NCBI RefSeq assembly: GCF_000772955.1
Contig: NZ_JPVO01000044.1
Coordinates: forward strand, 62,001 to 126,000
DNA: 64,000 nt
From: Ureibacillus sinduriensis BLB-1 = JCM 15800
Lineage (GTDB): Bacteria; Bacillota; Bacilli; Bacillales_A; Planococcaceae
Reading direction: 5' to 3'
Part shown: positions 4,124 to 15,008 of the stretch, in pieces
How the letters are laid out: each line of letters opens with the position of its first letter
How positions within the stretch are numbered: position 1 is the first letter of the stretch
Translations under genes and position numbers: made by a program
Notes under the pieces: model-generated
What the model was told of the DNA's origin: nothing
The model's database searches: none
Seen by the model: the letters and a program-made list of their open reading frames with translations, nothing else

Positions 4124-6079
4124 ATGGAAGGTTTAATGAATAAAAAAGACAACTTTTTAAATAAATTTTTTGGTTTATATACACTTGCCGTAATCATGTT
4201 ATGGCTTAAAACATATATCACGCAAGTAACCCAGTTCAACTTGGGGGTGGAAGGGCCACTGCAGCAATTTCTTCTATTTATCAACCCATTAGGTTCTGCA
4301 ATGCTATTCCTTGGCTTTGCGTTTTTATTTAGAAGAAGAGGACGATATGTATCCCTAGTAATCATTTACACATTTATGTCCATCCTTTTATTTGCGAATG
4401 CGGTATATTATCGATTCTTCAGTGATTTTATAACATTGCCGACAATCTTCCAAACGCAAAACTTTGGAGATTTAGGCGGCAGCGTGTTATCACTGTTGCA
4501 TGTGTCGGATATTTTATTCTTTGTGGATGTATTTGTATTAATTTACCTATGTTCAACTAAAAAATTACAAAAAGACAGTACTAGAATGGGCTACAAAAGA
4601 GGCCTTGCATTGATTGCTTTCATCATCGGATTTTCCGCAGTCAATCTGGAACTTGCGAATGCCGATCGCCCGCAACTATTAACACGTGGGTTTGATAGAA
4701 GTTATATTGTGAAGTACTTAGGAATGTATAACTATACTCTTTATGATGCGACAGAAACGGTAAAGGCGTCTTCCCAAAGGGTATTGGCAGATAACGATGA
4801 TATGACGGAAGTTATCAACTATACCAAATCGAATTATGCTGAACCGAATCCAGAATACTTTGGTGCGGCAAAAGGCAAGAATGTAATCTATATCCATTTG
4901 GAGTCATTCCAAAACTTTTTAATCGACTATAAATTGAATGGTGAAGAAGTTACTCCATTCATTAATTCTTTAGCTGGAGATGCAGGTTCATTATACTTTG
5001 ATAATTTCTTCCATCAAACAGCCCAAGGTAAAACGTCGGATGCCGAATTTATGCTGGAAAATTCAATCTTTGGTTTACCACAAGGATCGGCCTTCATTAC
5101 AAAAGGTCAAAATACGTATCAAGCAGCTCCAGCAATATTAAGTGATAATGGCTATACATCGGCTGTTTTCCACGGGAATAGCGGTACTTTCTGGAACCGT
5201 AACAAGATTTATAAAGCATTTGGCTATGAACATTTCTTTGATGCTAAATATTACGATACAAGCAACGAAATCGATATGGCAGAATACGGTTTATTGGATA
5301 AGCCGTTCTTTGAACAATCAGTGCCGCTGCTGGAAACATTGCCTCAACCGTTCTATACGAAATTCATTACGGTTGGACATCATTATCCTTACAAAATCAA
5401 TCAAGATCTAACAACAATCGGTAAAGCGGATACTGGCGATGCAAGTGTCGATGATTATTTCCAAACAGCTCGTTATGCCGATGAAGCCATTGAACAATTC
5501 TTTGCTTCTTTAAAAGAGGCGGGGCTATATGAAAATAGTATTTTCGTTCTTTATGGGGATCACTATGGTATCTCGGAAAATCATAATAAAGCCATGTCAA
5601 AACTCATGGGCAAAGAAATTGGTTCATTTGAAAGCACAAATTTACAACGAGTTCCATTAATCATCCATGTTCCAGGAATGGAAGGTGGAGTCAATCATAC
5701 TTATGGGGGACAAATTGACCTTCTACCGACATTACTGCATTTACTTGGAATCGACACTCATAATTATGTTCAATTCGGTACAGATTTATTATCAAAAGAG
5801 CATAATGAGGTAGTGCTGTTCAGAAATGGCGACTATGTCAGCCCAACAATCTACTCTATTAGTGATAAATACTATGATGCGAAAACTGGTTTGCCATTGG
5901 ATGAGAGCCAACTAGAATTAGCGAATGAGTACAAAAAAGAAGTAAATTATAAATTGCAACTATCAGATAGAGTGGTGAATGGAGATTTATTAAGATTTTA
6001 CACTCCGGCAGACTTTACGAAAGTTGATCCATCAAAGTTCAATTATAATAAAAATTTGGAAACAAACGGTAACCAATAA
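4124..6079 (+). CDS. ltaS: Lipoteichoic acid synthase family phosphoglycerol transferase
   Basis: This 651-residue membrane enzyme transfers glycerol-phosphate from phosphatidylglycerol to the growing lipoteichoic acid chain outside the cell. About five transmembrane helices fill residues 15-190, followed by an extracellular sulfatase/alkaline-phosphatase-fold domain (about 235-620). Metal and nucleophile motifs are visible: IHLESFQ (Glu near 259), the QGKTSDAE motif with the catalytic Thr near 304, and YGDHYGISENHN near 478. Length and order fit LtaS and its paralogues YfnI/YqgS; which paralogue it is cannot be settled here. The start follows GGAAGGTGG. Confidence 0.9.
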   Translation: MEGLMNKKDNFLNKFFGLYTLAVIMLWLKTYITQVTQFNLGVEGPLQQFLLFINPLGSAMLFLGFAFLFRRRGRYVSLVIIYTFMSILLFANAVYYRFFSDFITLPTIFQTQNFGDLGGSVLSLLHVSDILFFVDVFVLIYLCSTKKLQKDSTRMGYKRGLALIAFIIGFSAVNLELANADRPQLLTRGFDRSYIVKYLGMYNYTLYDATETVKASSQRVLADNDDMTEVINYTKSNYAEPNPEYFGAAKGKNVIYIHLESFQNFLIDYKLNGEEVTPFINSLAGDAGSLYFDNFFHQTAQGKTSDAEFMLENSIFGLPQGSAFITKGQNTYQAAPAILSDNGYTSAVFHGNSGTFWNRNKIYKAFGYEHFFDAKYYDTSNEIDMAEYGLLDKPFFEQSVPLLETLPQPFYTKFITVGHHYPYKINQDLTTIGKADTGDASVDDYFQTARYADEAIEQFFASLKEAGLYENSIFVLYGDHYGISENHNKAMSKLMGKEIGSFESTNLQRVPLIIHVPGMEGGVNHTYGGQIDLLPTLLHLLGIDTHNYVQFGTDLLSKEHNEVVLFRNGDYVSPTIYSISDKYYDAKTGLPLDESQLELANEYKKEVNYKLQLSDRVVNGDLLRFYTPADFTKVDPSKFNYNKNLETNGNQ

Positions 6080-6081
6080 TT

Positions 6082-6127
6082 AAAAGGGTAAGATATGACA
6101 ATTCAATTTGTGATATCTTACCCTTTT
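6082..6127 (+). terminator. ltaS terminator
   Basis: A perfect 15-bp stem (AAAAGGGTAAGATAT with its complement) is followed by a T run directly after the ltaS stop. Confidence 0.9.
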
Positions 6128-6193
6128 TGTTTTCATATTATTAGCCATCAGAACTTCCGTATAAAAAAGGTTGGATATAATTTGGAGGATACC

Positions 6194-6430
6194 ATGCCAC
6201 AAGAGAAGCAACCGAACCCCGATAATCGACACAATAATGTTGAACGTTTACATGACATGATAGAAAATACGAAAAGCAAACTTCATGAGGCGGAAATCAG
6301 TTTGGAATTTGCAAGTCCGGAAGAACGTGAAATGATCCAAAGTAAAAATGAACGCCGAAAGCAATCGATTGAAGCGATGGAAAATGAAATGCAAGACGAG
6401 ATGAATGCACGTAAAAACGGGGAATATTAA
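6194..6430 (+). CDS. tlp: Small acid-soluble spore protein Tlp
   Basis: This 78-residue hydrophilic protein matches B. subtilis Tlp along its length: QPNPDNRHNNVERLHDMIENT at the start, EFASPEEREMIQSKNERR in the middle and EMQDEMNARKNGEY at the end. Tlp is a minor forespore protein made late in sporulation. The start at 6194 is chosen because TTTGGAGG precedes it at ideal spacing and it matches the family N-terminus; an upstream in-frame ATG at 6095 lies inside the ltaS terminator. Confidence 0.92.
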   Translation: MPQEKQPNPDNRHNNVERLHDMIENTKSKLHEAEISLEFASPEEREMIQSKNERRKQSIEAMENEMQDEMNARKNGEY

Positions 6431-6432
6431 AA

Positions 6433-6600
6433 AGAGCTTAACTATGCTTGATGGCCAAGCTCCCAGCGTGTAGACAAAGTCGATATTCGGCTCTGTTTAC
6501 ACGCTTTTTTAAGTTAATTCCTTATAATGAACGAGACAACCAACGCGAAGGTCATTTATGAACCGTTTTGGAGCTTAACCATGTTTGGTGGTTAGGCTCT
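6433..6600 (+). repeat. Two related stem-loop repeats flanking the tlp terminator
   Basis: The element GAGCTTAACYATGYTTGRTGG...GCTC occurs at about 6434-6462 and again at about 6572-6600. Each copy folds on itself and they differ by compensating or wobble changes. The tlp terminator hairpin lies between them. This intergenic stretch holds no gene. Confidence 0.55.
6465..6511 (+). terminator. tlp terminator
   Basis: AGCGTGTAGACAAAGTCG pairs with CGGCTCTGTTTACACGCT, allowing G-U pairs, and six T follow. Its 16-base core GTGTAGACAAAGTCGA is repeated in the terminator at 60868. Confidence 0.8.
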
Positions 6601-6624: not shown

Positions 6625-7788
6625 TTATAATTCCAACTTTTCGACCAAGGGAATCCCGATTTTCTTTAAAAGCAATGATAGCAGTTTCCAGAAATACTTT
6701 TTGTGGAAGGGGAGATGGCCCACATACAATGCTGTATATTCAGGCGTTCCTTCTCCACTTCTAGCTTTTTTGAAATTTCCGGCTCCTGCACTTTGGTGAT
6801 ATAAATATTGGTTATCCAGCGCCAACCTCGTATTTAAGTGCCGTAATATCCGATAGAGTTGGTGCTGTGGAAATAATGAAAGGTTGTATCCATAAATCGG
6901 ATTTGTCATCATGTTATTCAGTACAAAGGTCCCTGAAATTGCTTCCAGCCTCCCGTTGATTTTTATCCCCTGAAATAAAAATAAGTCTTTGTCCAGTAAT
7001 TTCTCAATGAATTTGTATGTGAATTGGGGATTCAAGACGGAATACTTTTCAATATATAATTGATTGTAAAGCTCAACAATCCGACCAATATCCTCCGTTG
7101 CTAAATCTTTATTTGTTACGATGGTCATTCCTTCCGTGAGGCCCTTTTCATCTTGCCTTCTCTTTTTCCGCTCACTTTTAGTTGGCGTATTCAATCTGTC
7201 GTACGTAGAAATATAGATATATCGACTCGGCAATAGTTCAAATCCTTCTTCTTCGAAAGACACCATCATATCCTTATGGGTAATTGCATTTATCGAACGG
7301 AAACCTAGTTGATATTTCGGAAACTGTTCGGTAAGCAAATTCCTCAACGCACGAATCTCCCTTTTGGATAAGGCAGATACTAAATTTGTAGACAAGCAAT
7401 AATTGTTAATGTAAACAATTTTGTTAATTTCAATAGATTTAGCAAAAGAACCAAAAATATTGATAATTGCCGCCAAGAGGGTTCTTAGCGCTTTTGGGGA
7501 AATGAAGCGTAATTCTTCCTTTGCGTAAGTAATGTAATGTGTGTATGGTGAACAAACGTAAGAATTGTTGTATTCAGCCTCATTCACTGTGCAGGGGATT
7601 AATTTGCGTCCAATGGCTGCCAAAAAAATTTCGGTATCCACGTTTTTCATATAGGCGGTTGTATCTGTGATAAATTCATCGAAATATTCTTTTAAGAAAG
7701 CGCCATTTTCATAGAAACTCCAATCCAATTCAGCCATGTCGTCTTTACCGTATAGTTTTGCTCTAGATTTAGAAGGCACTTTGGACAA
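6625..7788 (-). CDS. GNAT/FemAB-like acyltransferase, last gene of the six-gene biosynthetic operon
   Basis: This 387-residue protein has a C-terminal half (about 220-370) that looks like a GNAT/FemAB-type acyl- or aminoacyl-transferase fold, with a SGTF...NPIYGYN...SAGAGNFKKARG-like core. The N-terminal half is not recognised. Translation most likely starts at TTG 7788: GGAGGT lies 8 bp upstream and the start sits inside the end of the preceding gene (20-bp overlap). Position in the operon suggests it transfers or accepts the group activated by the adenylating enzyme; that is inference. No signal peptide is seen. Confidence 0.65.
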   Translation of the reverse strand: MSKVPSKSRAKLYGKDDMAELDWSFYENGAFLKEYFDEFITDTTAYMKNVDTEIFLAAIGRKLIPCTVNEAEYNNSYVCSPYTHYITYAKEELRFISPKALRTLLAAIINIFGSFAKSIEINKIVYINNYCLSTNLVSALSKREIRALRNLLTEQFPKYQLGFRSINAITHKDMMVSFEEEGFELLPSRYIYISTYDRLNTPTKSERKKRRQDEKGLTEGMTIVTNKDLATEDIGRIVELYNQLYIEKYSVLNPQFTYKFIEKLLDKDLFLFQGIKINGRLEAISGTFVLNNMMTNPIYGYNLSLFPQHQLYRILRHLNTRLALDNQYLYHQSAGAGNFKKARSGEGTPEYTALYVGHLPFHKKYFWKLLSLLLKKIGIPLVEKLEL

Positions 7789-9112
7789 CCTTATTTACCT
7801 CCATGTTATTTTTAATTCGTTTTAGTTTTGCTGTGCGATCATTTTCTTGATAGGCACGAAAAGTTATTTTTGGGCTTTCGTAATACTGTTGAAAGAAGGC
7901 ATTTAAATTAGTCCTAATGTTTTCCTCGGTTCTTTGCCTTTTTGTTTCATCAAATACAAGACATTGCACCTCAATGTCATGCGGATTGTGTTGCATCACT
8001 ATATATTCTTTTAGATTTTCCGAAGCCGAGATACAGGCCCGTCTGACGAAGTCAGGAAAGACGTGCTCCAAATTGCCATTGTGTTTATTTTTAAGAATAA
8101 ATAAGTCATCCATCCGGCCTTCTATCTGCTCAATCGCCAACATCGGCGAGCCGCAAGGACAGGGTTCGGACTTAAGAGTGAGGATATCGTTTAATCGATA
8201 ACGGATAATTGGTTGTGTACGTCTTTTAAAATCGGTAACGATTGGATAGAATTTCGTTCGATCGTTATCAAGGAATTCTTTTTCGATATATACAAGATCT
8301 TCGTTTAAATGTATTGTCCCGTGGGAGCATGAGCAGCCCAGGAAGCCCTCTGTACATTGATAAACTTGATGGATTTTTTGATTGAAAACACTTTCGATGA
8401 AGGATTCGTCCAAAGGGTCCAACACTTCAGCCATTGTGATAATTTTGATAGGGCTTATGCTAAGCTTATTTTCACTTACAGCACTGGCAATTTGTCTGAT
8501 CATTGAAGGAGGTGCGGCCAAGATAGTTGGCTGATACTCTTCCAATCTTTTAATATGGGTGTCAAAGTGGTCCAGCAAATCATAAAATGCAAACTCAATT
8601 TTTTTATTTCTTACAGACTCATACAAATTACTGTTCGCACGTAAGAAGAATGCAATCTTCTCCTTGCTTTTAAAGCCATTGGGCAACAATTTGGCTAAAA
8701 TCGTCCCGGCCCAAGCCGATTGTTCTTCTTTGGAAACGAGGAAGATTCCTCTGTTTCCTGATGTACCAGAAGATAATCCGACTGTAATGCTGCCTATTGT
8801 CGGGGAAAAATTCCTGTTTTCCTCCGCTTCTATGGCAACTCTAAAAGCCTCTTCTTTTCCCACACCTTTCGTATTCAACTCGTCGAAGTTTTCCATCATT
8901 ATTTGTTTATTCATAAAAGGATACTGAGCCAAATCTGGTGCTTTTAATAAGTCATTCTTCTTTAGTTGTTCAAAATAGGGGGAATGAGTGTTTATCCATT
9001 TTAGATGCTTTTGTAATTGTTTGTTTTGCCACCTGCGAAATTTTTCTGGCGAGTACTTTTGTATTCTTTTGACTTTTAGATAATTTTTTAAAATGTTCAT
9101 TAATTTAATCAT
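7769..9112 (-). CDS. PaaK/F390-synthetase-like adenylate-forming enzyme
   Basis: This 447-residue member of the acyl-adenylate superfamily is closest in style to PaaK, CapK and coenzyme F390 synthetase-related proteins. The ATP P-loop motif is visible as VGLSSGTSGNRG at about residues 112-123. Later motifs include YQCTEGFLGCSC and RYRLNDIL with a CPCGS zinc-like loop. Such enzymes activate a carboxylate as an acyl-AMP and pass it to CoA or an amine. The ATG at 9112 overlaps the stop of the MBL gene by 8 bp and is preceded by AGAGGT. The substrate is unknown; the operon suggests a fatty-acid-derived acid. Confidence 0.8.
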   Translation of the reverse strand: MIKLMNILKNYLKVKRIQKYSPEKFRRWQNKQLQKHLKWINTHSPYFEQLKKNDLLKAPDLAQYPFMNKQIMMENFDELNTKGVGKEEAFRVAIEAEENRNFSPTIGSITVGLSSGTSGNRGIFLVSKEEQSAWAGTILAKLLPNGFKSKEKIAFFLRANSNLYESVRNKKIEFAFYDLLDHFDTHIKRLEEYQPTILAAPPSMIRQIASAVSENKLSISPIKIITMAEVLDPLDESFIESVFNQKIHQVYQCTEGFLGCSCSHGTIHLNEDLVYIEKEFLDNDRTKFYPIVTDFKRRTQPIIRYRLNDILTLKSEPCPCGSPMLAIEQIEGRMDDLFILKNKHNGNLEHVFPDFVRRACISASENLKEYIVMQHNPHDIEVQCLVFDETKRQRTEENIRTNLNAFFQQYYESPKITFRAYQENDRTAKLKRIKNNMEVNKVVQSAF

Positions 9113-9977
9113 CAGTTACCTCTTTGCTTGTGGAAGTCGTTTGTTGGTATGGTTCCTCGCAATGAGAAGGAATGATTTTGATTTCTTTGTTCAATGAGTG
9201 CAACCGGACCATTTTTTTAAAGTTCTCTTTATAGTCTTTAATATTATCCATAATCACGTATGCTAGTTTGCTTGGTGGGCGATTCTCCCGAAAGCCTGCG
9301 CTTCTCCATACCGAATCTGCTGCCAGAAAGACCGTCTCCCCTTTATCGTTTTCAAAAATCAATCCATATTGACCTTTTGCATGCCCTGATAAATTCAGGG
9401 CTAAACAACTACCATCACCCCAAAGGTCAAAAAGCGGCTTCTGAAAGACTTCACTAATAATGCTGGAAGGGCGGTTTTGAGCTTCGGTGGGCTTTGCATC
9501 TTCAATAAAGAAGACTCGATCCTCAAAGTCACTCGGCAATAGATTGGGGATATAAGCAGAAATGACGGCACCGATGCCTTTTTTATTTTTAACGTGTTGA
9601 TATGCTTCTTTTGAACAGATAAAAATACTGTTAGGGAAATCTCTAAGCCCACACATATGATCTGCATGAAAATGACTTAGAAAAATATATCGAATATCAT
9701 CAGCATGAATATTTTCCTTCTCCAGCTGGGCCAATATACTTTCTTTTGAATTTACATGGACAGGTGTTATTTTGGCATAGATGGAAAACGGGAACCTCTT
9801 TGTCTCTTCATAAAATCTCTCGGAATATCCAGTATCGAATAAAATATACCCTTTAACTGGATGATGTAATAAAACTACGGTCGCCGGAAATTTCATCTCA
9901 TAGGATGGTTCACCTTTTAAGGCTACTTTAGCATTATGAGTGCAGTAACCGGTTTGAAATAATTTATATGGTAACAT
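9105..9977 (-). CDS. Metallo-beta-lactamase-fold hydrolase, N-acyl-homoserine-lactonase-like
   Basis: This 290-residue cytoplasmic protein has the zinc motif SHFHADH (His102, His104, Asp106, His107), an upstream DTGYSERF loop and later LSGHAKGQ and IPSHCE, the pattern of AHL-lactonase-type MBL enzymes. The start at 9977 is chosen over 10001 because GGTGGAAAG precedes it and the protein then begins MLPYKLFQTG; it overlaps the end of the reductase gene by 14 bp. In this operon it may release or hydrolyse a thioester or lactone intermediate. Quorum quenching is possible but not favoured by the context. Confidence 0.78.
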   Translation of the reverse strand: MLPYKLFQTGYCTHNAKVALKGEPSYEMKFPATVVLLHHPVKGYILFDTGYSERFYEETKRFPFSIYAKITPVHVNSKESILAQLEKENIHADDIRYIFLSHFHADHMCGLRDFPNSIFICSKEAYQHVKNKKGIGAVISAYIPNLLPSDFEDRVFFIEDAKPTEAQNRPSSIISEVFQKPLFDLWGDGSCLALNLSGHAKGQYGLIFENDKGETVFLAADSVWRSAGFRENRPPSKLAYVIMDNIKDYKENFKKMVRLHSLNKEIKIIPSHCEEPYQQTTSTSKEVTDD

Positions 9978-10971
9978 TTTGTACTTTCCACCATTCCGCA
10001 AATTTATGAATGCCTTCTTCGACCGAAATGCGCGGATTATATCCTAATTCGGTTCTAGCTGCATCAATGTTTAATGTTTGGGAGTGTGCCAGTACCGTCA
10101 CAGTGTAGGGAGTGATAATCGGTTCCTTTTTAATATGCAGTAATCGATAAGTTTTTTCCAGGATGCTTGCGACCCGTAAAATGCTCCCATATTGGATATT
10201 TTTCTTTTTCATCGGCTGCCCAAGCAATGTAAAAACTTTCTCCAGAATATCGTTTAAATACATCGGTTCACCGTTCGTAATGTTATATTTTTTTCCGACA
10301 GTCCGCTCATCTGAATGAAGGCACAGACATATTGCATCCACAACATTTTCGATATATGTAATATCCGTCAATATTCTTGCTTCATCAATGAATGGCAGTC
10401 CTGATTTTTGATTCGTTTTAATCAGTCTTGGAATAATGGCATTATCTCCAGGTCCAAACAGTGCACGAGGCCTAATTGTGATCGTTTGCAGGCCTTTAAT
10501 AAAAGCTTCATCGACAACCTCTTCGGCCATCCTCTTCGTCTTTGCATAGTAGTTAACGGCAGGATCGGGTAGTGCGCTGTCCTCTTTCACATCGAGTTTT
10601 GAGCGTTCCTGCAGACTAAAATAGATGCTTGGTGTGGATACGTGGACAAATCTTTTAATTTTGTAGAAGAGGGCAGAATCGACCATATTCTGTGTGCCGA
10701 GGACGTTCGCATTATAAAAAGCGTCATATTTCCCCCATACAGAAGAAAGTGCCCCACAATGGACCACCAATTCCTGATTCTGCATTGCTTGAAAAATTGC
10801 CTCCCTATCTTCCAGTGAGGCTTGTACAAATCGAACACCCCGGGGAAGAGCATTGCCAATAGTTTTGTTGCGACCTATTGCCGTTACACGATATCCCTCT
10901 TCAGCTAGCCGTTTAACAAGATGTTGACCTAAAAAACCCGTGGCTCCTGTTACTAAAATATTTTTGTTCAA
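9964..10971 (-). CDS. NAD(P)-dependent epimerase/3-beta-HSD family reductase, OleD-like
   Basis: This 335-residue extended short-chain dehydrogenase has the dinucleotide motif TGATGFLG at residues 7-14, a STPS strand and the catalytic YYAKTK. Its RPRALFGPGD and PRLI segments resemble OleD, the 2-alkyl-3-oxoalkanoate reductase of bacterial olefin and beta-lactone pathways, so a beta-keto reduction after the KAS III step is plausible. The likely start is TTG 10971, placed by GGAGAGGAG; it lies 5 bp beyond the stop of the ATP-grasp gene. The upstream in-frame ATG at 10995 has no ribosome site. Confidence 0.78.
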   Translation of the reverse strand: MNKNILVTGATGFLGQHLVKRLAEEGYRVTAIGRNKTIGNALPRGVRFVQASLEDREAIFQAMQNQELVVHCGALSSVWGKYDAFYNANVLGTQNMVDSALFYKIKRFVHVSTPSIYFSLQERSKLDVKEDSALPDPAVNYYAKTKRMAEEVVDEAFIKGLQTITIRPRALFGPGDNAIIPRLIKTNQKSGLPFIDEARILTDITYIENVVDAICLCLHSDERTVGKKYNITNGEPMYLNDILEKVFTLLGQPMKKKNIQYGSILRVASILEKTYRLLHIKKEPIITPYTVTVLAHSQTLNIDAARTELGYNPRISVEEGIHKFAEWWKVQNVTI

Positions 10972-10976
10972 AGTTC

Positions 10977-12128
10977 TCACTCCTCTCCGTTCCATTCAAT
11001 GTCCAAGGTGCTCAGTTGATAACTGGATACTTTTCTCCTCCTCGATTCCTTTATCAAATATAGGAAGCTGGTTATTTGACCGAAAAACGCATATGGATCA
11101 TTTGAATTCCAGACAATGTCTTTTGCCTTGGCCATTTTAAGGATTTGTTTCCATGGATTTTTGCTAACAAATGTACGAAGCATTGCTAAACCGAGCATCG
11201 TTGTTTCTGTACCGACATGATAGGATTGCGTAATTTGCCTGCGTTCTGTAAGAGGGAATAGGCAGATCCCGCTTGTTGTTCTTGGGTTACATTCAATTGG
11301 ATATAACGCATCATTGCCGGACAAGATTAAATCAAAGGCGATTTGACCTGTATATTCATTTTGCTCGATATAACGTTTTACAAATGCCTCTAATTTCGGG
11401 TTACTAAATGGTTCAAAATAGATTGTAGCGCCTAGTCCGACATTATCGTTCGTTTGATAGGCGCTGTAACATTGCATTCGGCCTTTATCCGCAATTGCGT
11501 AAGTACAAATTTGAATCCCTTCGATTTTTTCTTGGATAACCCAGATGGTTTGCTTCAAGAGAAGGAAGTCCGGTATTTCGGAACCTTTTTTAAAAACAAC
11601 TTCTGTTCCAAATCTTGAAAAGGCGGGCTTACATACATATACATTATCTGATTGTAGGTGGTGAGTCTTCAAATAATCTGTAATTTCCGACCTGGAGTTA
11701 ATTCTGGTTGTATCGATGACTAGCGTGGAAGGAACGTGGATATATTCACTAAAGCCATTCCTCAATGTATCGATGAACAACCCTTTATGGTGAAAAGTTT
11801 TTAATTTCTCCAACGGCTCGCAAAGTACTCGGCAATAGTTTGATAGTGTTTCATGTGCATAGGCAATGTGGAACACTTCTTCACAAGTGGGTATTAATAG
11901 ATCAATATTGTATTCTTGGATAATCTTGATTAGATTTTGGATGTATTTATGACGGTTCTCATTTGGAGAAATGACTTGAAAAGTCTTTTCAAATAATTTC
12001 GAGCGCATACATAAGTGTTTGGGTAAACTTTCTGCCATAAATAGGTTGTTGCCTTGCTGCTTTAACAAGCGGGCGAAATAATATGTTGCAGGAGCACGTC
12101 CGCCTGTTAGAAGGACATTAGTACTCAA
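10977..12128 (-). CDS. ATP-grasp domain protein (carboxylate-amine ligase type)
   Basis: This 383-residue protein opens with a Rossmann-like pre-ATP-grasp segment (NVLLTGGRAPATYYFARLL) and carries ATP-grasp signatures: KPAFSRFGTEVV near residue 185, IQEKIEGIQICTYA near 220, and IECNPRTTSG near 295, which supplies the Mg-binding Glu/Asn. ATP-grasp ligases couple a carboxylate to an amine or thiol through an acyl-phosphate. The start is best placed at TTG 12128: GGAGGGG is 6 bp upstream, and TTGAGTACTAA lets it overlap the KAS III stop by 11 bp. The longer ATG frame from 12194 would run backwards into the KAS III gene. Confidence 0.8.
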   Translation of the reverse strand: MSTNVLLTGGRAPATYYFARLLKQQGNNLFMAESLPKHLCMRSKLFEKTFQVISPNENRHKYIQNLIKIIQEYNIDLLIPTCEEVFHIAYAHETLSNYCRVLCEPLEKLKTFHHKGLFIDTLRNGFSEYIHVPSTLVIDTTRINSRSEITDYLKTHHLQSDNVYVCKPAFSRFGTEVVFKKGSEIPDFLLLKQTIWVIQEKIEGIQICTYAIADKGRMQCYSAYQTNDNVGLGATIYFEPFSNPKLEAFVKRYIEQNEYTGQIAFDLILSGNDALYPIECNPRTTSGICLFPLTERRQITQSYHVGTETTMLGLAMLRTFVSKNPWKQILKMAKAKDIVWNSNDPYAFFGQITSFLYLIKESRRRKVSSYQLSTLDIEWNGEE

Positions 12129-13116
12129 ATACAACCCCTCCGATAGATAGACCTGCCGAAGTACCCAACAGCATAATTTTGTTGCCGCGTTCAATCTTAT
12201 TTTGAACTATCGCTTCGTGCAGTGCCATAGGAATGCTGGATGCAATGGTGTTTCCATGATTGTGGATAATGTTCATGAATTTTGCTTCTGCAATGCCTAG
12301 TTTTTTCCTTAAAATCCTCATCGCCATTCCACTTGCCTGGTGTGGAACAACCAAGTCTATTTCATCTATCGTGCAATTGGAGGCTGCCAATAATTTTTCC
12401 ATAAAAGCGCCAAGTTTTCTTGACGATAATTTGAAAATTGACTTTCCATTCATATCAAATAGAAAGTCCGTTTCATCTGCACTTGAATTATTAGGGTGTA
12501 CTTTTGTTCCTCCGCCTCTAATTTCAGTGTAATGGGCACCTTCGCTAAACGTTTCCATATGGCCGGCCAATACTTTGGAAGGTTCGTTATCCGGAGTTTT
12601 CGCCAATATGGCAGCAGCAGCACCATCTCCGAATAATATGGCATTTTCTTTCGCCTTCCAATTCAATCCGACCGATGCAATTTCACTGGAAACCAATAAT
12701 ACGTTCGTGTATCTTCCGCTATGTATTAGATAAGAGATAGTATCAAAACCTGTTACGAAACTTAAACAAGTGGAGTTAATATCAAAACATGGAATACTGG
12801 ATTCACCCAATCCCAATTGCTTCTGAACAAGTGCAGCATTACATGGTATCGGTTGTTCCATTGTCCCGCTTACACTGACGATGCAATCTATTTCTTCTTT
12901 ATGTATTCCAGCTGTTTTCATCGCTTCGGTTGCTGCATGGGCTGCCATTACTGAAGCAGTCTCATTTTCAACGAAGGAGCGGATGCCAACCCCAGATTTT
13001 TGTTCCACCCATCCTTCTTTTACGCCGATTAATTCATCGAGCTCATGTGCATATACTTTTCTTTTCGGCAAATATTTACCTGTTCCTATTATTTTTACAT
13101 TTCTAACTTGAGACAT
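12118..13116 (-). CDS. Beta-ketoacyl synthase III (KAS III/FabH-like), first gene of the six-gene operon
   Basis: This 332-residue thiolase-fold condensing enzyme has a full catalytic triad: Cys117 in INSTCLSF, His259 in VPHQASG and Asn289 in NHGNTIAS. The family condenses an acyl-CoA with malonyl-ACP or a second acyl chain. It is a pathway-associated paralogue, not the fatty-acid fabH, judging by its position heading an operon of an ATP-grasp ligase, a reductase, an MBL hydrolase and an adenylating enzyme. The ATG at 13116 gives the standard family N-terminus (NVKIIGTGKYLP). The OleA glutamate does not align, so an OleA reaction is not assumed. Confidence 0.85.
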   Translation of the reverse strand: MSQVRNVKIIGTGKYLPKRKVYAHELDELIGVKEGWVEQKSGVGIRSFVENETASVMAAHAATEAMKTAGIHKEEIDCIVSVSGTMEQPIPCNAALVQKQLGLGESSIPCFDINSTCLSFVTGFDTISYLIHSGRYTNVLLVSSEIASVGLNWKAKENAILFGDGAAAAILAKTPDNEPSKVLAGHMETFSEGAHYTEIRGGGTKVHPNNSSADETDFLFDMNGKSIFKLSSRKLGAFMEKLLAASNCTIDEIDLVVPHQASGMAMRILRKKLGIAEAKFMNIIHNHGNTIASSIPMALHEAIVQNKIERGNKIMLLGTSAGLSIGGVVFEY

Positions 13117-13495
13117 AACGATTCTTTCCGCCTTCCTGAGTAAAAAACAGTTTGTCATACAAAGGTGTGATTAGTGATGTAGATGAAAGCTATTATAAAG
13201 ATAAAAGAACGAAATTCCTATGGAGAAATTCGTTCCTTTTTAAAATAATGATCTGGGACTATATCTAAATTCTACTGAAACCGCGTTGATTTAGGTCATT
13301 ATAATACTTCAAATATTATATCAAAAACTAAATATATTTGTTTATACTTAGTTAAGAATTCCACTGCCAAATTAATCCCTTTTTCATGTGGACGAAATAA
13401 AATGATGCAGTCATAATTTACTATCTATGAACAGTACTTACTATATGGTATTATCAAAAAAGAGAATGGTATTAATGTAACAGGAGGAAATACCT
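13117..13495. promoter_or_regulatory. Divergent intergenic region between the biosynthetic operon and the DUF2156 gene
   Basis: No gene is seen here. A hairpin at about 13207-13235 (GAACGAAaTTC with a near-complement) has T-rich tracts on both sides, so it could act as a leader attenuator about 90 bp before the KAS III start. TATAAT-like sequence near 13300 on the minus strand may be part of the operon promoter. These are weak eye-level calls. Confidence 0.35.
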
Positions 13496-14602
13496 ATGGT
13501 TTCTTTGAAAAACCTCATTCCGAACATTCGAAACAAGCATACACAGAGAGGTTTATCAGAAAATCAGGTACACGTCGAGCACGATGAGTTGCTTCCTTTT
13601 TTAAAGAAACACGGGGGTAACCATGTATCGCATCTTATCTTTTTGCAAGATAAACAACAATTTTGGATAAAAGATATGAATGTGTTGATTGTGTATAAAA
13701 GAATTCTCGATAAATACGTAGTGCTTGGCGATCCGATTGGAGAAGAATCGAATTTCCATATCGCAATAAAGGAGTTCAATGAGTATTGCAAGGTGAAAAG
13801 GGTCAAGCCTCTCTACTACCAGGTCAACCCTCGTCATATGCCACTTTATCATGAAGTTGGATTTCGATTTATAAAACTAGGTGAAGAGGCACTTATTAAT
13901 CTTAATAACTTTTCAATTGAAGGGAAAAAGGGGGCGAAGCTTCGTACAAGGCTTAATAAATTTACTCGTAATGGTTTTACATTCACTGTAGTAGAACCGC
14001 CACATACTTCTCAACTTATTTCAGAGATTAGAAGAATTTCGGATTGTTGGTTGGGGGAAGAAAAAGAGAAGGGCTTCTCCGTGGTTTCATTTAGCGATGG
14101 ATACGTCTCGCACTTCCCGATTGCACTGCTCCGTAATTCTCAAGGCAAGATTGTTGCATTTGCAACTCTTGCAAATGACTACAAGGAAACAATAGCGATT
14201 GACCTTATGAGAAACTGTAAAAACAGTCCGCATGGCACCATGGATGTATTGTTTACCAAGATCATCCTGTGGGCAAAGGATGCCGGCTATCGCAATTGTA
14301 GTTTGGGTGTGGCACCATTGGCCAATGTTGGAATTTGCGAGCATTCATTTATGAGTGAAAAGATTATTCATTTTGTCTACCGATACGGAAATGGGAAGTA
14401 CAATTTTAAAGGGTTGAAAGAATTCAAAGGGAAGTTTGCAACTGATTGGGAACCGAAATATTTAGCTTATAAAAAATCGTTTTTACCGATTGCCTTCCTG
14501 CAATTAGTAGTATTGATCAACCGAAAAAAACAAGATCCTGAAACGCTCTTAAACAAAAAAAATGTTCGGAAAGTAATTGATAATAAATTATATTTCGAAT
14601 AA
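13496..14602 (+). CDS. DUF2156 protein, soluble MprF-catalytic-domain-like aminoacyl-phospholipid transferase
   Basis: This 368-residue protein matches the cytosolic catalytic domain of MprF, the lysyl/alanyl-phosphatidylglycerol synthase, but lacks the large membrane flippase domain. Family landmarks include GDPIGEES near residue 80, KGAKLRTRLNKF near 142, AIDLMRN near 238, and the C-terminal FKGKFATDWEPKYLAY. Such enzymes move an amino acid from aminoacyl-tRNA to a lipid head group. The ATG follows AACAGGAGG. It diverges from the biosynthetic operon and is followed after 16 bp by a GtrA-like gene, so lipid or glycolipid modification is a reasonable guess. Confidence 0.75.
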   Translation: MVSLKNLIPNIRNKHTQRGLSENQVHVEHDELLPFLKKHGGNHVSHLIFLQDKQQFWIKDMNVLIVYKRILDKYVVLGDPIGEESNFHIAIKEFNEYCKVKRVKPLYYQVNPRHMPLYHEVGFRFIKLGEEALINLNNFSIEGKKGAKLRTRLNKFTRNGFTFTVVEPPHTSQLISEIRRISDCWLGEEKEKGFSVVSFSDGYVSHFPIALLRNSQGKIVAFATLANDYKETIAIDLMRNCKNSPHGTMDVLFTKIILWAKDAGYRNCSLGVAPLANVGICEHSFMSEKIIHFVYRYGNGKYNFKGLKEFKGKFATDWEPKYLAYKKSFLPIAFLQLVVLINRKKQDPETLLNKKNVRKVIDNKLYFE

Positions 14603-14618
14603 CCAGGAAAGGTAAGGC

Positions 14619-15008
14619 ATGGTGCTAAAGAAAGTATTCGGAAAGTTCATTAAATATAGTTTGGTAGGTTGTGTAAGTACGGTTATCTATTTTCTGGCGG
14701 TTTATATTCTTATAGAAGGTTTCTATATGGAACCTGTAATGGGTTCAGCCCTATCATTTATCATCATGACCATTGCATCCTTTTTCCTGAATGTAAAATA
14801 TACTTTCAATAGTATTATTACCGGGCAGAAGGCGATGCGGTTTATGATGGTATCCACGATAGGGTTTATCTTGAATTTTATATTGATGTTTATCATTGTT
14901 CATGTTTTTGCTTATCACTATTTCATTGGAGAATTGGTTACCATTTTAGTTATCCCTATCGTTAACTTTTTGCTTAATAATTATTGGACCTTCCAAACGA
15001 ATACATAA
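14619..15008 (+). CDS. GtrA-like four-helix membrane protein
   Basis: This 129-residue protein has four predicted membrane helices (about residues 10-30, 35-55, 72-95, 98-120) with the family pattern FIKYSLVGCVSTVIYF at the start and NFLLNNYWTF at the end. GtrA-family proteins are thought to flip or position lipid-linked sugars. It begins 16 bp after the DUF2156 gene with its own AGGAAAGG site, so the two are probably cotranscribed. Confidence 0.8.
   Translation: MVLKKVFGKFIKYSLVGCVSTVIYFLAVYILIEGFYMEPVMGSALSFIIMTIASFFLNVKYTFNSIITGQKAMRFMMVSTIGFILNFILMFIIVHVFAYHYFIGELVTILVIPIVNFLLNNYWTFQTNT

What the first reader, a model, noticed from the sequence alone, without database searches (positions are those of the whole stretch)
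6625..13116. Six-gene operon combining KAS III, ATP-grasp, OleD-like reductase, MBL hydrolase, PaaK/F390-like enzyme and GNAT-like transferase
Seen: six genes on one strand, all overlapping or within 5 bp, with catalytic motifs intact (Cys-His-Asn triad, ATP-grasp loops, TGATGFLG, HFHADH, SSGTSGNRG). Known: KAS III plus OleD-like reductase plus an adenylating enzyme is the logic of olefin/beta-lactone (OleABCD) pathways, but OleB is absent, the adenylating enzyme is of the PaaK/F390 class, and ATP-grasp plus GNAT-like enzymes point to amide or ester coupling. Inferred: a pathway that builds a beta-keto or beta-hydroxy acyl chain, activates it and couples it to an amino acid or lipid head. I know of no named system with this set.
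Basis: partly seen in the sequence, partly recalled or inferred. Interest (0 to 1): 0.82.

Follow-up and report, generated by a model that had tools for sequence, protein, structure and literature searches.

The report
Widespread uncharacterised fatty-acyl coupling gene cassette
A set of bacterial genes that recurs side by side in distant bacteria, including many E. coli, looks like a pathway that builds a modified fatty acid, activates it and hangs an amino acid or another group on it, but nobody seems to have described its product.

Summary
In detail: six coupled minus-strand genes (6625-13116), active-site residues intact. They are not a local curiosity. Of 80 relatives found from the F390-like gene, 72 hold all four core genes (KAS III, OleD-like reductase, MBL hydrolase, F390-like enzyme) and 42 exactly the window's six-gene order. 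From the KAS side, 54 of 398 Bacilli genomes carry it; 39 of 40 regions examined hold the five genes in order. The four-gene core also occurs in Fusobacterium, alpha-, beta- and gamma-Proteobacteria, a Parachlamydiaceae MAG, and 672 of 5426 complete E. coli genomes, with other partner genes (glycosyltransferase, hydroxylase, desaturase, phosphatase, Rieske protein). The ATP-grasp and tandem-GNAT genes form a second, separable pair. The KAS is not OleA-type (catalytic Glu is Ile/Leu in 31 of 31); its nearest solved relatives are MxnB/CorB, which fuse two acyl chains, though a tree does not settle that kinship. Best reading: fused or extended acyl chain, reduced to a beta-hydroxy acid, adenylated, coupled to amino acids. 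Substrates and product are inferred. Seven full-text searches aimed at this set found no description (open-licence papers only).

The parts
12118..13116 (-). KAS III ketosynthase (332 aa; Cys117-His259-Asn289; Ile90-Pro91 at the OleA Glu117-Pro position), nearest solved relatives MxnB/CorB
10977..12128 (-). ATP-grasp ligase (383 aa from TTG 12128), fold near CPSase-like 2pn1, PylC and L-amino-acid ligases; E279/N281 motif conserved
9964..10971 (-). OleD-like extended SDR reductase (TTG 10971; TGATGFLG, Tyr144-x3-Lys148 numbering)
9105..9977 (-). MBL-fold hydrolase with all metal ligands; Trp where the aligned AHL lactonases have Tyr
7769..9112 (-). F390-synthetase-related PaaK-class adenylate-forming enzyme (TIGR02304; SSGTSGNRG, Lys429)
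6625..7788 (-). Tandem-GNAT transferase, fold near Fem/MprF-type aminoacyl transferases (TTG 7788)
13203..13344 (-). Leader of the operon: promoter-like site (13344-13315, 10 of 12, TG) and an 11-bp hairpin followed by T's (13240-13203)
   Evidence: weak: promoter-like sites are not enriched over shuffles (35 found, 40.6 expected), fold z-score -0.12, hairpin not seen upstream of the nearest relative L027

Best explanation
The operon makes an amino-acid-bearing acyl lipid (lipoamino acid or small aminolipid). Step 1: the KAS loads an acyl chain on Cys117 and joins it to a second acyl or beta-ketoacyl thioester from primary metabolism, giving a long, probably two-chain keto intermediate. Step 2: the MBL enzyme hydrolyses the thioester (or an early lactone) to the free acid. 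Step 3: the OleD-like reductase turns the ketone into a hydroxyl. Step 4: the F390/PaaK-class enzyme adenylates the hydroxy acid. Step 5: the ATP-grasp ligase (amino-acid ligase type) and the tandem GNAT (Fem/MprF type, possibly aminoacyl-tRNA dependent) build or attach the amino-acid head. Shown here: gene set, linkage, conserved active sites, nearest solved relatives, folds of two proteins, and modularity (four-gene core; ATP-grasp/GNAT pair; other partner genes elsewhere). Inferred: every substrate, the order of steps 2-4, the two-chain nature, the amino-acid head.
For: Pairwise identities of gene pairs correlate, Spearman 0.70-0.87 (species descent contributes). KAS: best solved relatives MxnB 300 and CorB 284 bits, best FabH 246; at equal thresholds 11 positions shared with MxnB/CorB and not with four FabH against 3 the other way (10 against 3 at 90%; MxnB against the nearest single FabH 16 against 8), among them Thr319 = MxnB Thr322 near the junction of its two tunnels (PMC5724707 passages). 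Cys-His-Asn kept, so C-C bond chemistry. Two other genes of the genome pass the FabH cut-off, so this is not the housekeeping enzyme. ATP-grasp fold: 2pn1, PylC, RizA, BL00235, YwfE among the best. GNAT fold: Sba18/Sbb17, MprF domain, FemX among the best. 47 of 49 GNAT loci also have the ATP-grasp, and the two stand together without core genes within 7-8 kb in two Deinococcus plasmids. Lipid setting of other versions: GT21 (Pfam), OlsE-like hydroxylase and MGT-type glycosyltransferase (NCBIfam hits far below their cut-offs), FA_desaturase, PAP2.
Against: No substrate or product is known. The KAS lacks the OleA/PpyS glutamate (Ile 23, Leu 8 of 31), the known base for joining two plain acyl chains; MxnB/CorB join beta-ketoacyl chains. 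His and Asn as in FabH also allow ordinary malonyl-ACP extension. The trees do not settle the kinship with MxnB/CorB: the first had no outgroup beyond FabH and so cannot; with a distant outgroup the grouping has 84/93 and the alternatives are not rejected (AU p 0.36). No carrier protein or PKS in the operon. Fold matches of ATP-grasp and GNAT are distant (8-17% identity, TMq mostly 0.3-0.6) in broad superfamilies; the GNAT also matches CoA-using tandem GNATs and N-myristoyltransferase. Hydrolysing a thioester only to re-activate the acid is wasteful unless the reductase needs the free acid. 31 of 80 loci lack the GNAT and 10 of 80 the ATP-grasp (some at contig ends), so amino-acid coupling is not universal. 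Presence is patchy: 5 of 25 genomes of the genus, 9 of 398 in the phylum.
Confidence: 0.42

Rival explanations
1. Single-chain version: the KAS extends one acyl-CoA/ACP with malonyl-ACP (FabH chemistry), the reductase makes a 3-hydroxy fatty acid, and this is activated and linked to an amino acid, as in ornithine-type lipids.
For: FabH His and Asn kept, hydrophobic residue where four FabH have Phe; scores just over the FabH-type subfamily NF006829 cut-off (254 vs 249 bits); tree grouping with MxnB/CorB not decisive.
Against: Signature positions shared with MxnB/CorB; below the FabH cut-off of TIGR00747 (237 vs 292); 3-hydroxyacyl-ACP already comes from normal fatty acid synthesis (established knowledge), so a dedicated KAS and reductase would be redundant.
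Confidence: 0.27
2. Analogue of OleABCD made of other parts: KAS = OleA, reductase = OleD, F390-like = OleC (beta-lactone former), MBL = OleB-like, giving a beta-lactone or an olefin.
For: Four enzyme roles match one to one; the core occurs without ATP-grasp and GNAT (L053, L070, L077, L089, L093, L096); the reductase's best NCBIfam model is OleD.
Against: OleA glutamate absent, no OleB or OleC homologue in the operon; frequent amino-acid, sugar or hydroxylating partners need a handle that an olefin lacks.
Confidence: 0.12
3. Signal pathway: the KAS makes a pyrone- or lactone-type signal and the lactonase-like MBL controls its turnover.
For: MxnB/CorB make alpha-pyrones (PMC5724707, PMC4901931); PpyS pyrones are signals (PMC4578411); MBL is nearest to AHL lactonases among solved structures.
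Against: The lactonase Tyr is a near-invariant Trp; adenylating enzyme, ATP-grasp and tandem GNAT are not needed for a pyrone. A receptor gene was not searched for systematically; TetR genes lie next to the core in L105, L107, L109 and L111.
Confidence: 0.1

Closest known systems
OleABCD / OleACD (olefin and beta-lactone pathways; lipstatin lst cluster, the latter from passages and recall)
   Same: Thiolase-type condensing enzyme, OleD-type reductase and an adenylate-forming enzyme in one operon (PMC7064751, abstract and passages)
   Different: No OleA glutamate, PaaK/F390 class instead of OleC, MBL instead of OleB, ATP-grasp and tandem GNAT added
MxnB / CorB chain-fusing ketosynthases (myxopyronin, corallopyronin)
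   Same: Closest solved relatives of the KAS; shared signature positions
   Different: Those serve PKS chains on carrier proteins and give alpha-pyrones; here no PKS, no carrier protein, and a reductase gene; shared clade not established
TIGR02304 F390-synthetase-related proteins
   Same: Clear member (534 bits)
   Different: The model's name assigns no reaction; true coenzyme F390 synthetase TIGR03335 scores 24 bits (cut-off 459)
AHL lactonases (AiiA, AttM, GcL)
   Same: MBL fold with the same metal ligands
   Different: Tyr replaced by Trp; equivalog cut-offs missed
PylC / L-amino-acid ligases and Fem/MprF-type aminoacyl transferases
   Same: Among the nearest folds of the ATP-grasp and GNAT proteins
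   Different: 8-17% identity; acceptor and amino acid unknown

Membership tests
OleABCD / OleACD pathway | OleA glutamate 117 followed by proline (PMC7064751: all but two of its OleA proteins) | tested here: not met
   Aligned position is Ile (23) or Leu (8) in 31 of 31 module KAS, followed by Pro in 31 of 31; no OleA sequence was in the alignment, the position is taken from MxnB Val94 (PMC4578411) and the Pro
OleABCD / OleACD pathway | OleD equivalog | tested here: not met
   NF042422 236 bits, cut-off 580
OleABCD / OleACD pathway | OleC and OleB present | tested here: not met
   Adenylating enzyme is TIGR02304; only hydrolase in the operon is MBL-fold
OleABCD / OleACD pathway | Olefin or beta-lactone product | not testable with these tools
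   Needs chemistry
MxnB/CorB-type ketosynthase | CHN triad with a hydrophobic residue in place of the PpyS/OleA glutamate | tested here: met
   Cys117, His259, Asn289; Ile/Leu versus Val in MxnB/CorB
MxnB/CorB-type ketosynthase | One clade with MxnB/CorB apart from FabH | tested here: inconclusive
   84/93 with a type III PKS outgroup; alternatives not rejected, AU p 0.36; the tree cannot tell, having no outgroup beyond FabH
MxnB/CorB-type ketosynthase | Two substrate tunnels | not tested
   No KAS model made; Thr319 = MxnB Thr322 in 29 of 30 rows
Myxopyronin/corallopyronin pathway | PKS chains on carrier proteins | tested here: not met
   No PKS or carrier protein in the operon
Housekeeping FabH | TIGR00747 cut-off | tested here: not met
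   237 of 292 bits; two other genes of the genome pass it
NF006829 (PRK09352) KAS III subfamily | Curated cut-off | tested here: met
   254 of 249 bits
NF005541 (PRK07204) KAS III | Curated cut-off | tested here: met
   497 of 402 bits
TIGR02304 F390-synthetase-related | Curated cut-off | tested here: met
   534 versus 251.9 bits
AHL lactonase | Metal ligands HxHxDH~H~D~H | tested here: met
AHL lactonase | Tyr three residues after the metal Asp | tested here: not met
   Tyr in the four lactonase chains aligned; Trp in 8 of 8 and at least 97% of 88 rows
L-amino-acid ligase type ATP-grasp | Fold and Mg-binding Glu/Asn motif | tested here: inconclusive
   PylC TMq 0.56 and RizA 0.49 among the best, but so are PurK and biotin carboxylase; E279, N281 conserved
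NF005315 (PRK06849) ATP-grasp family | Curated cut-off | tested here: not met
   306 of 406 bits
Fem/MprF aminoacyl-tRNA transferase | Tandem GNAT fold of that type | tested here: inconclusive
   Best fold hits Sba18/Sbb17, MprF domain, FemX, but also CoA-using tandem GNATs and N-myristoyltransferase

The most novel reading that the evidence does not exclude
A widespread, undescribed route to two-tailed lipids that are neither glycerol- nor sphingoid-based: two acyl chains are fused by a C-C bond (mycolate-like) by a MxnB/CorB-like ketosynthase, reduced and activated by a conserved four-gene core, and each lineage plugs in its own head-group or tailoring module: ATP-grasp plus tandem GNAT (amino acids) in Bacilli, Paraburkholderia and Rhizobium; GT21 or MGT-type glycosyltransferases in Fusobacterium and some Firmicutes; hydroxylase, desaturase and PAP2 phosphatase in about an eighth of complete E. 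coli genomes.
Probability: 0.28. Interest if true: 0.87.

Novelty: new variant of a known kind. Interest (0 to 1): 0.64.

Why it matters
If right, a conserved pathway for an unknown acyl metabolite sits in 54 of 398 sampled Bacilli genomes, in Fusobacterium and in 672 of 5426 complete E. coli genomes, with no product in the papers searched. The four-gene core and its swappable partners give a ready test bed: one deletion plus lipidomics in a tractable Brevibacillus or Paenibacillus would reveal a compound class, assign a reaction to TIGR02304 (named only by resemblance), and show whether MxnB/CorB-like ketosynthases build membrane lipids outside polyketide pathways.

Tried and rejected
Rejected: OleA membership (no glutamate); AHL lactonase membership (Trp for Tyr); housekeeping FabH (TIGR00747 missed; two other FabH in the genome); anti-phage system (no PADLOC hit for the six proteins); phage-borne unit (5 weak phage matches of 21-28% identity; no relative among viral contigs); riboswitch or T-box leader (no Rfam hit in 13000-13600; fold z-score -0.12).

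Led nowhere: OleA sequences for the tree (NF006720 rang nowhere, uninformative); informative gene fusions (only two loci where a reductase remnant runs into the MBL frame); literature. Searches gave the Ole and pyrone papers, (lipstatin genes) nothing. The library holds open-licence PMC papers only.

Corrected on re-check: I first took the tree as showing a clade with MxnB/CorB; it has no outgroup beyond FabH and cannot. The rooted tree is inconclusive, so I lowered the best explanation from 0.45 to 0.42, the novel case from 0.30 to 0.28, and raised the single-chain rival from 0.25 to 0.27. The signature count used unequal thresholds; one search repeats it with equal ones (11 against 3; 10 against 3).

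Rows dropped: the identity and conservation analysis used only proteins scoring over 100 bits with my profiles; the first KAS tree used 31 hand-picked module rows, the second 17. My profiles were built from 1-5 seed proteins each, so weak members may be missed.
Full report
Observation. Six genes on the minus strand from 13116 down to 6625 overlap by 8-20 nt or are 5 nt apart. They encode a KAS III ketosynthase, an ATP-grasp enzyme, an OleD-like extended SDR, an MBL-fold hydrolase, an F390-synthetase-related PaaK-class enzyme and a protein with no Pfam or NCBIfam match. A model of the last (pLDDT 93.6) is a tandem GNAT whose best fold matches include the aminoacyl-tRNA-dependent peptide synthases Sba18/Sbb17, the MprF synthase domain and FemX. 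The ATP-grasp model (pLDDT 93.4) matches a CPSase-like protein, PylC and L-amino-acid ligases among the best, with PurK and biotin carboxylases also in the list.

How widespread and how linked. My profiles find KAS in 77, ATP-grasp in 70, reductase in 75, MBL in 78 and GNAT in 49 of the 80; the four core genes are all present in 72; 42 have exactly the window's order, and 65 have the five without regard to the GNAT. Of the 8 without a full core, L085 and L092 lie at contig ends, L064 and L086 have a reductase remnant running into the MBL frame, L050 and L094 lack a detected MBL, L032 lacks ATP-grasp and reductase, L088 lacks the KAS nearby. Most of the 80 are Bacillales; others are two cyanobacteria, Thiomargarita, a Parachlamydiaceae MAG and Clostridia.

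The reverse test starts from the KAS family NF005541: 54 of 398 sampled Bacilli genomes, 20 of 145 genera. In 30 of 30 short loci the ATP-grasp is adjacent and in 29 of 30 the reductase begins in the flank. Of 40 longer regions (40 of the 55 places), 39 hold KAS, ATP-grasp, reductase, MBL and F390-like genes in order, one of them with an SDR gene inserted; the exception lacks the reductase. 19 of the 40 have the GNAT downstream.

Other lineages. Plasmid-collection records show the core in Fusobacterium vincentii (a 2.1-Mb record labelled plasmid), Paraburkholderia, Roseateles, Rhizobium, Paracoccus, Ketogulonicigenium, Pseudomonas and E. coli. In E. coli a seven-gene version (KAS, reductase, MBL, F390-like, PAP2, sterol-desaturase/FA-hydroxylase, desaturase) lies next to narI; 672 of 5426 complete genomes match, 671 over at least 80% of its length. 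Partners differ: ATP-grasp and GNAT in Bacilli, Paraburkholderia, Rhizobium, Roseateles; Rieske protein in Rhizobium and Roseateles; GT21 and a classical SDR in Fusobacterium and Paenibacillus caui, MGT-type glycosyltransferase in P. caui; a divergent sulfotransferase and TetR in Rhodobacterales. Within the phylum as a whole it is patchy: 9 of 398 genomes over the TIGR02304 cut-off, 5 of 25 in the genus. In congener G005 the same neighbourhood (ltaS ... mprF-like, gtrA, MCP) has no operon but about 5.8 kb with two MCP-like genes.

Two modules. GNAT goes with ATP-grasp in 47 of 49 loci. In the plasmid collection 12 records hold a GNAT relative: ten also hold the core reductase within about 5 kb, and the other two, both Deinococcus, hold an ATP-grasp relative directly before it and no core gene within 7-8 kb (the rest of those genomes was not searched, and the control genome Deinobacterium chartae does ring for TIGR02304). 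Six of 80 loci have a full core without ATP-grasp or GNAT. So I read a chain-building core and an amino-acid coupling pair.

What the KAS does. It keeps Cys117, His259 and Asn289. OleA's base, Glu117 followed by Pro (PMC7064751, passages), corresponds to PpyS Glu105 and MxnB Val94 (PMC4578411, first of three parts read); here the position is Ile or Leu in 31 of 31 rows, followed by Pro. The best solved relatives are MxnB and CorB, which join two beta-ketoacyl chains (PMC5724707 and PMC4901931, passages). Equal-threshold signature counts favour MxnB/CorB over FabH 11 to 3, and Thr319 matches MxnB Thr322, described there as close to the junction of its two tunnels. Trees do not settle it: the rooted one gives 84/93, and the alternatives are not rejected (AU p 0.36). 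Chain fusion is therefore the favoured but unproved reading; single-chain extension stays open.

The other steps. The reductase's best NCBIfam model is OleD at 236 of 580 bits. The MBL keeps all metal ligands but has Trp where four aligned AHL lactonase chains have Tyr; I assign it thioester or lactone hydrolysis by inference. The F390-like enzyme keeps the adenylation motifs including Lys429 in at least 97% of 92 rows; it is not a coenzyme F390 synthetase (24 of 459 bits). Lipid-type partners in other versions (GT21, FA_hydroxylase, FA_desaturase, PAP2) favour a lipid product, though NCBIfam names such as HpnI and OlsE are hit far below their cut-offs.

Novelty. Seven full-text searches aimed at this set found no description; subscription journals are mostly not covered. 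The logic (condense, reduce, adenylate, couple) is known from Ole and lipstatin pathways; the parts, the MBL step, the coupling pair and the breadth are not, as far as I could see. I file it as a new variant of a known kind.

Noticed in passing
L150:4001-10882 (E. coli JJ2434) and L025:6191-13072: A seven-gene relative (KAS, reductase, MBL, F390-like, PAP2, FA-hydroxylase, desaturase) lies next to narI and, in JJ2434, before a tRNA-Tyr; 672 of 5426 complete E. coli genomes match. The 385-kb record of L025 is labelled plasmid but carries nar, purU and galU.
   Followed up: partly
L221:6847-9104 and L222:6853-9101: Deinococcus plasmids carry an ATP-grasp/GNAT pair alone, overlapping by 4 nt, without core genes within 7-8 kb.
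   Followed up: partly
L064, L086 (Brevibacillus): Two Brevibacillus assemblies hold two copies of the cassette; in one copy the reductase is deleted to a remnant that runs into the MBL frame.
   Followed up: partly
L026:318-10251 and L024: On Pseudomonas megaplasmids the core genes are spread over about 10 kb among unrelated genes or largely missing from the flank, with an ATP-grasp relative further off.
   Followed up: no
window 13203-13240: Eleven-bp hairpin followed by T's in the leader between a promoter-like site and the KAS start, looking like an attenuator; no Rfam match, not seen upstream of L027.
   Followed up: partly
window 4124-6430 and 13496-15008; L144: The operon sits between ltaS and an mprF-synthase-domain/gtrA pair; congener G005 has MCP-like genes at that site instead.
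   Followed up: partly
window about 6425-6600: Two similar inverted repeats of the form GAGC...GCTC after the GNAT stop, the second followed by a T run (read by eye).
   Followed up: no
L121:6524-7942, L122:7207-8667: More distant TIGR02304 members (about 325 bits with my profile) next to a membrane protein of about 400 aa (acyltransferase-3-like by eye), without KAS, reductase or a nearby core MBL.
   Followed up: no
L088:5065-6258: Calothrix version has a Rieske-type oxygenase (read by eye from the sequence) before the reductase, as in Rhizobium and Roseateles where one follows the GNAT.
   Followed up: no
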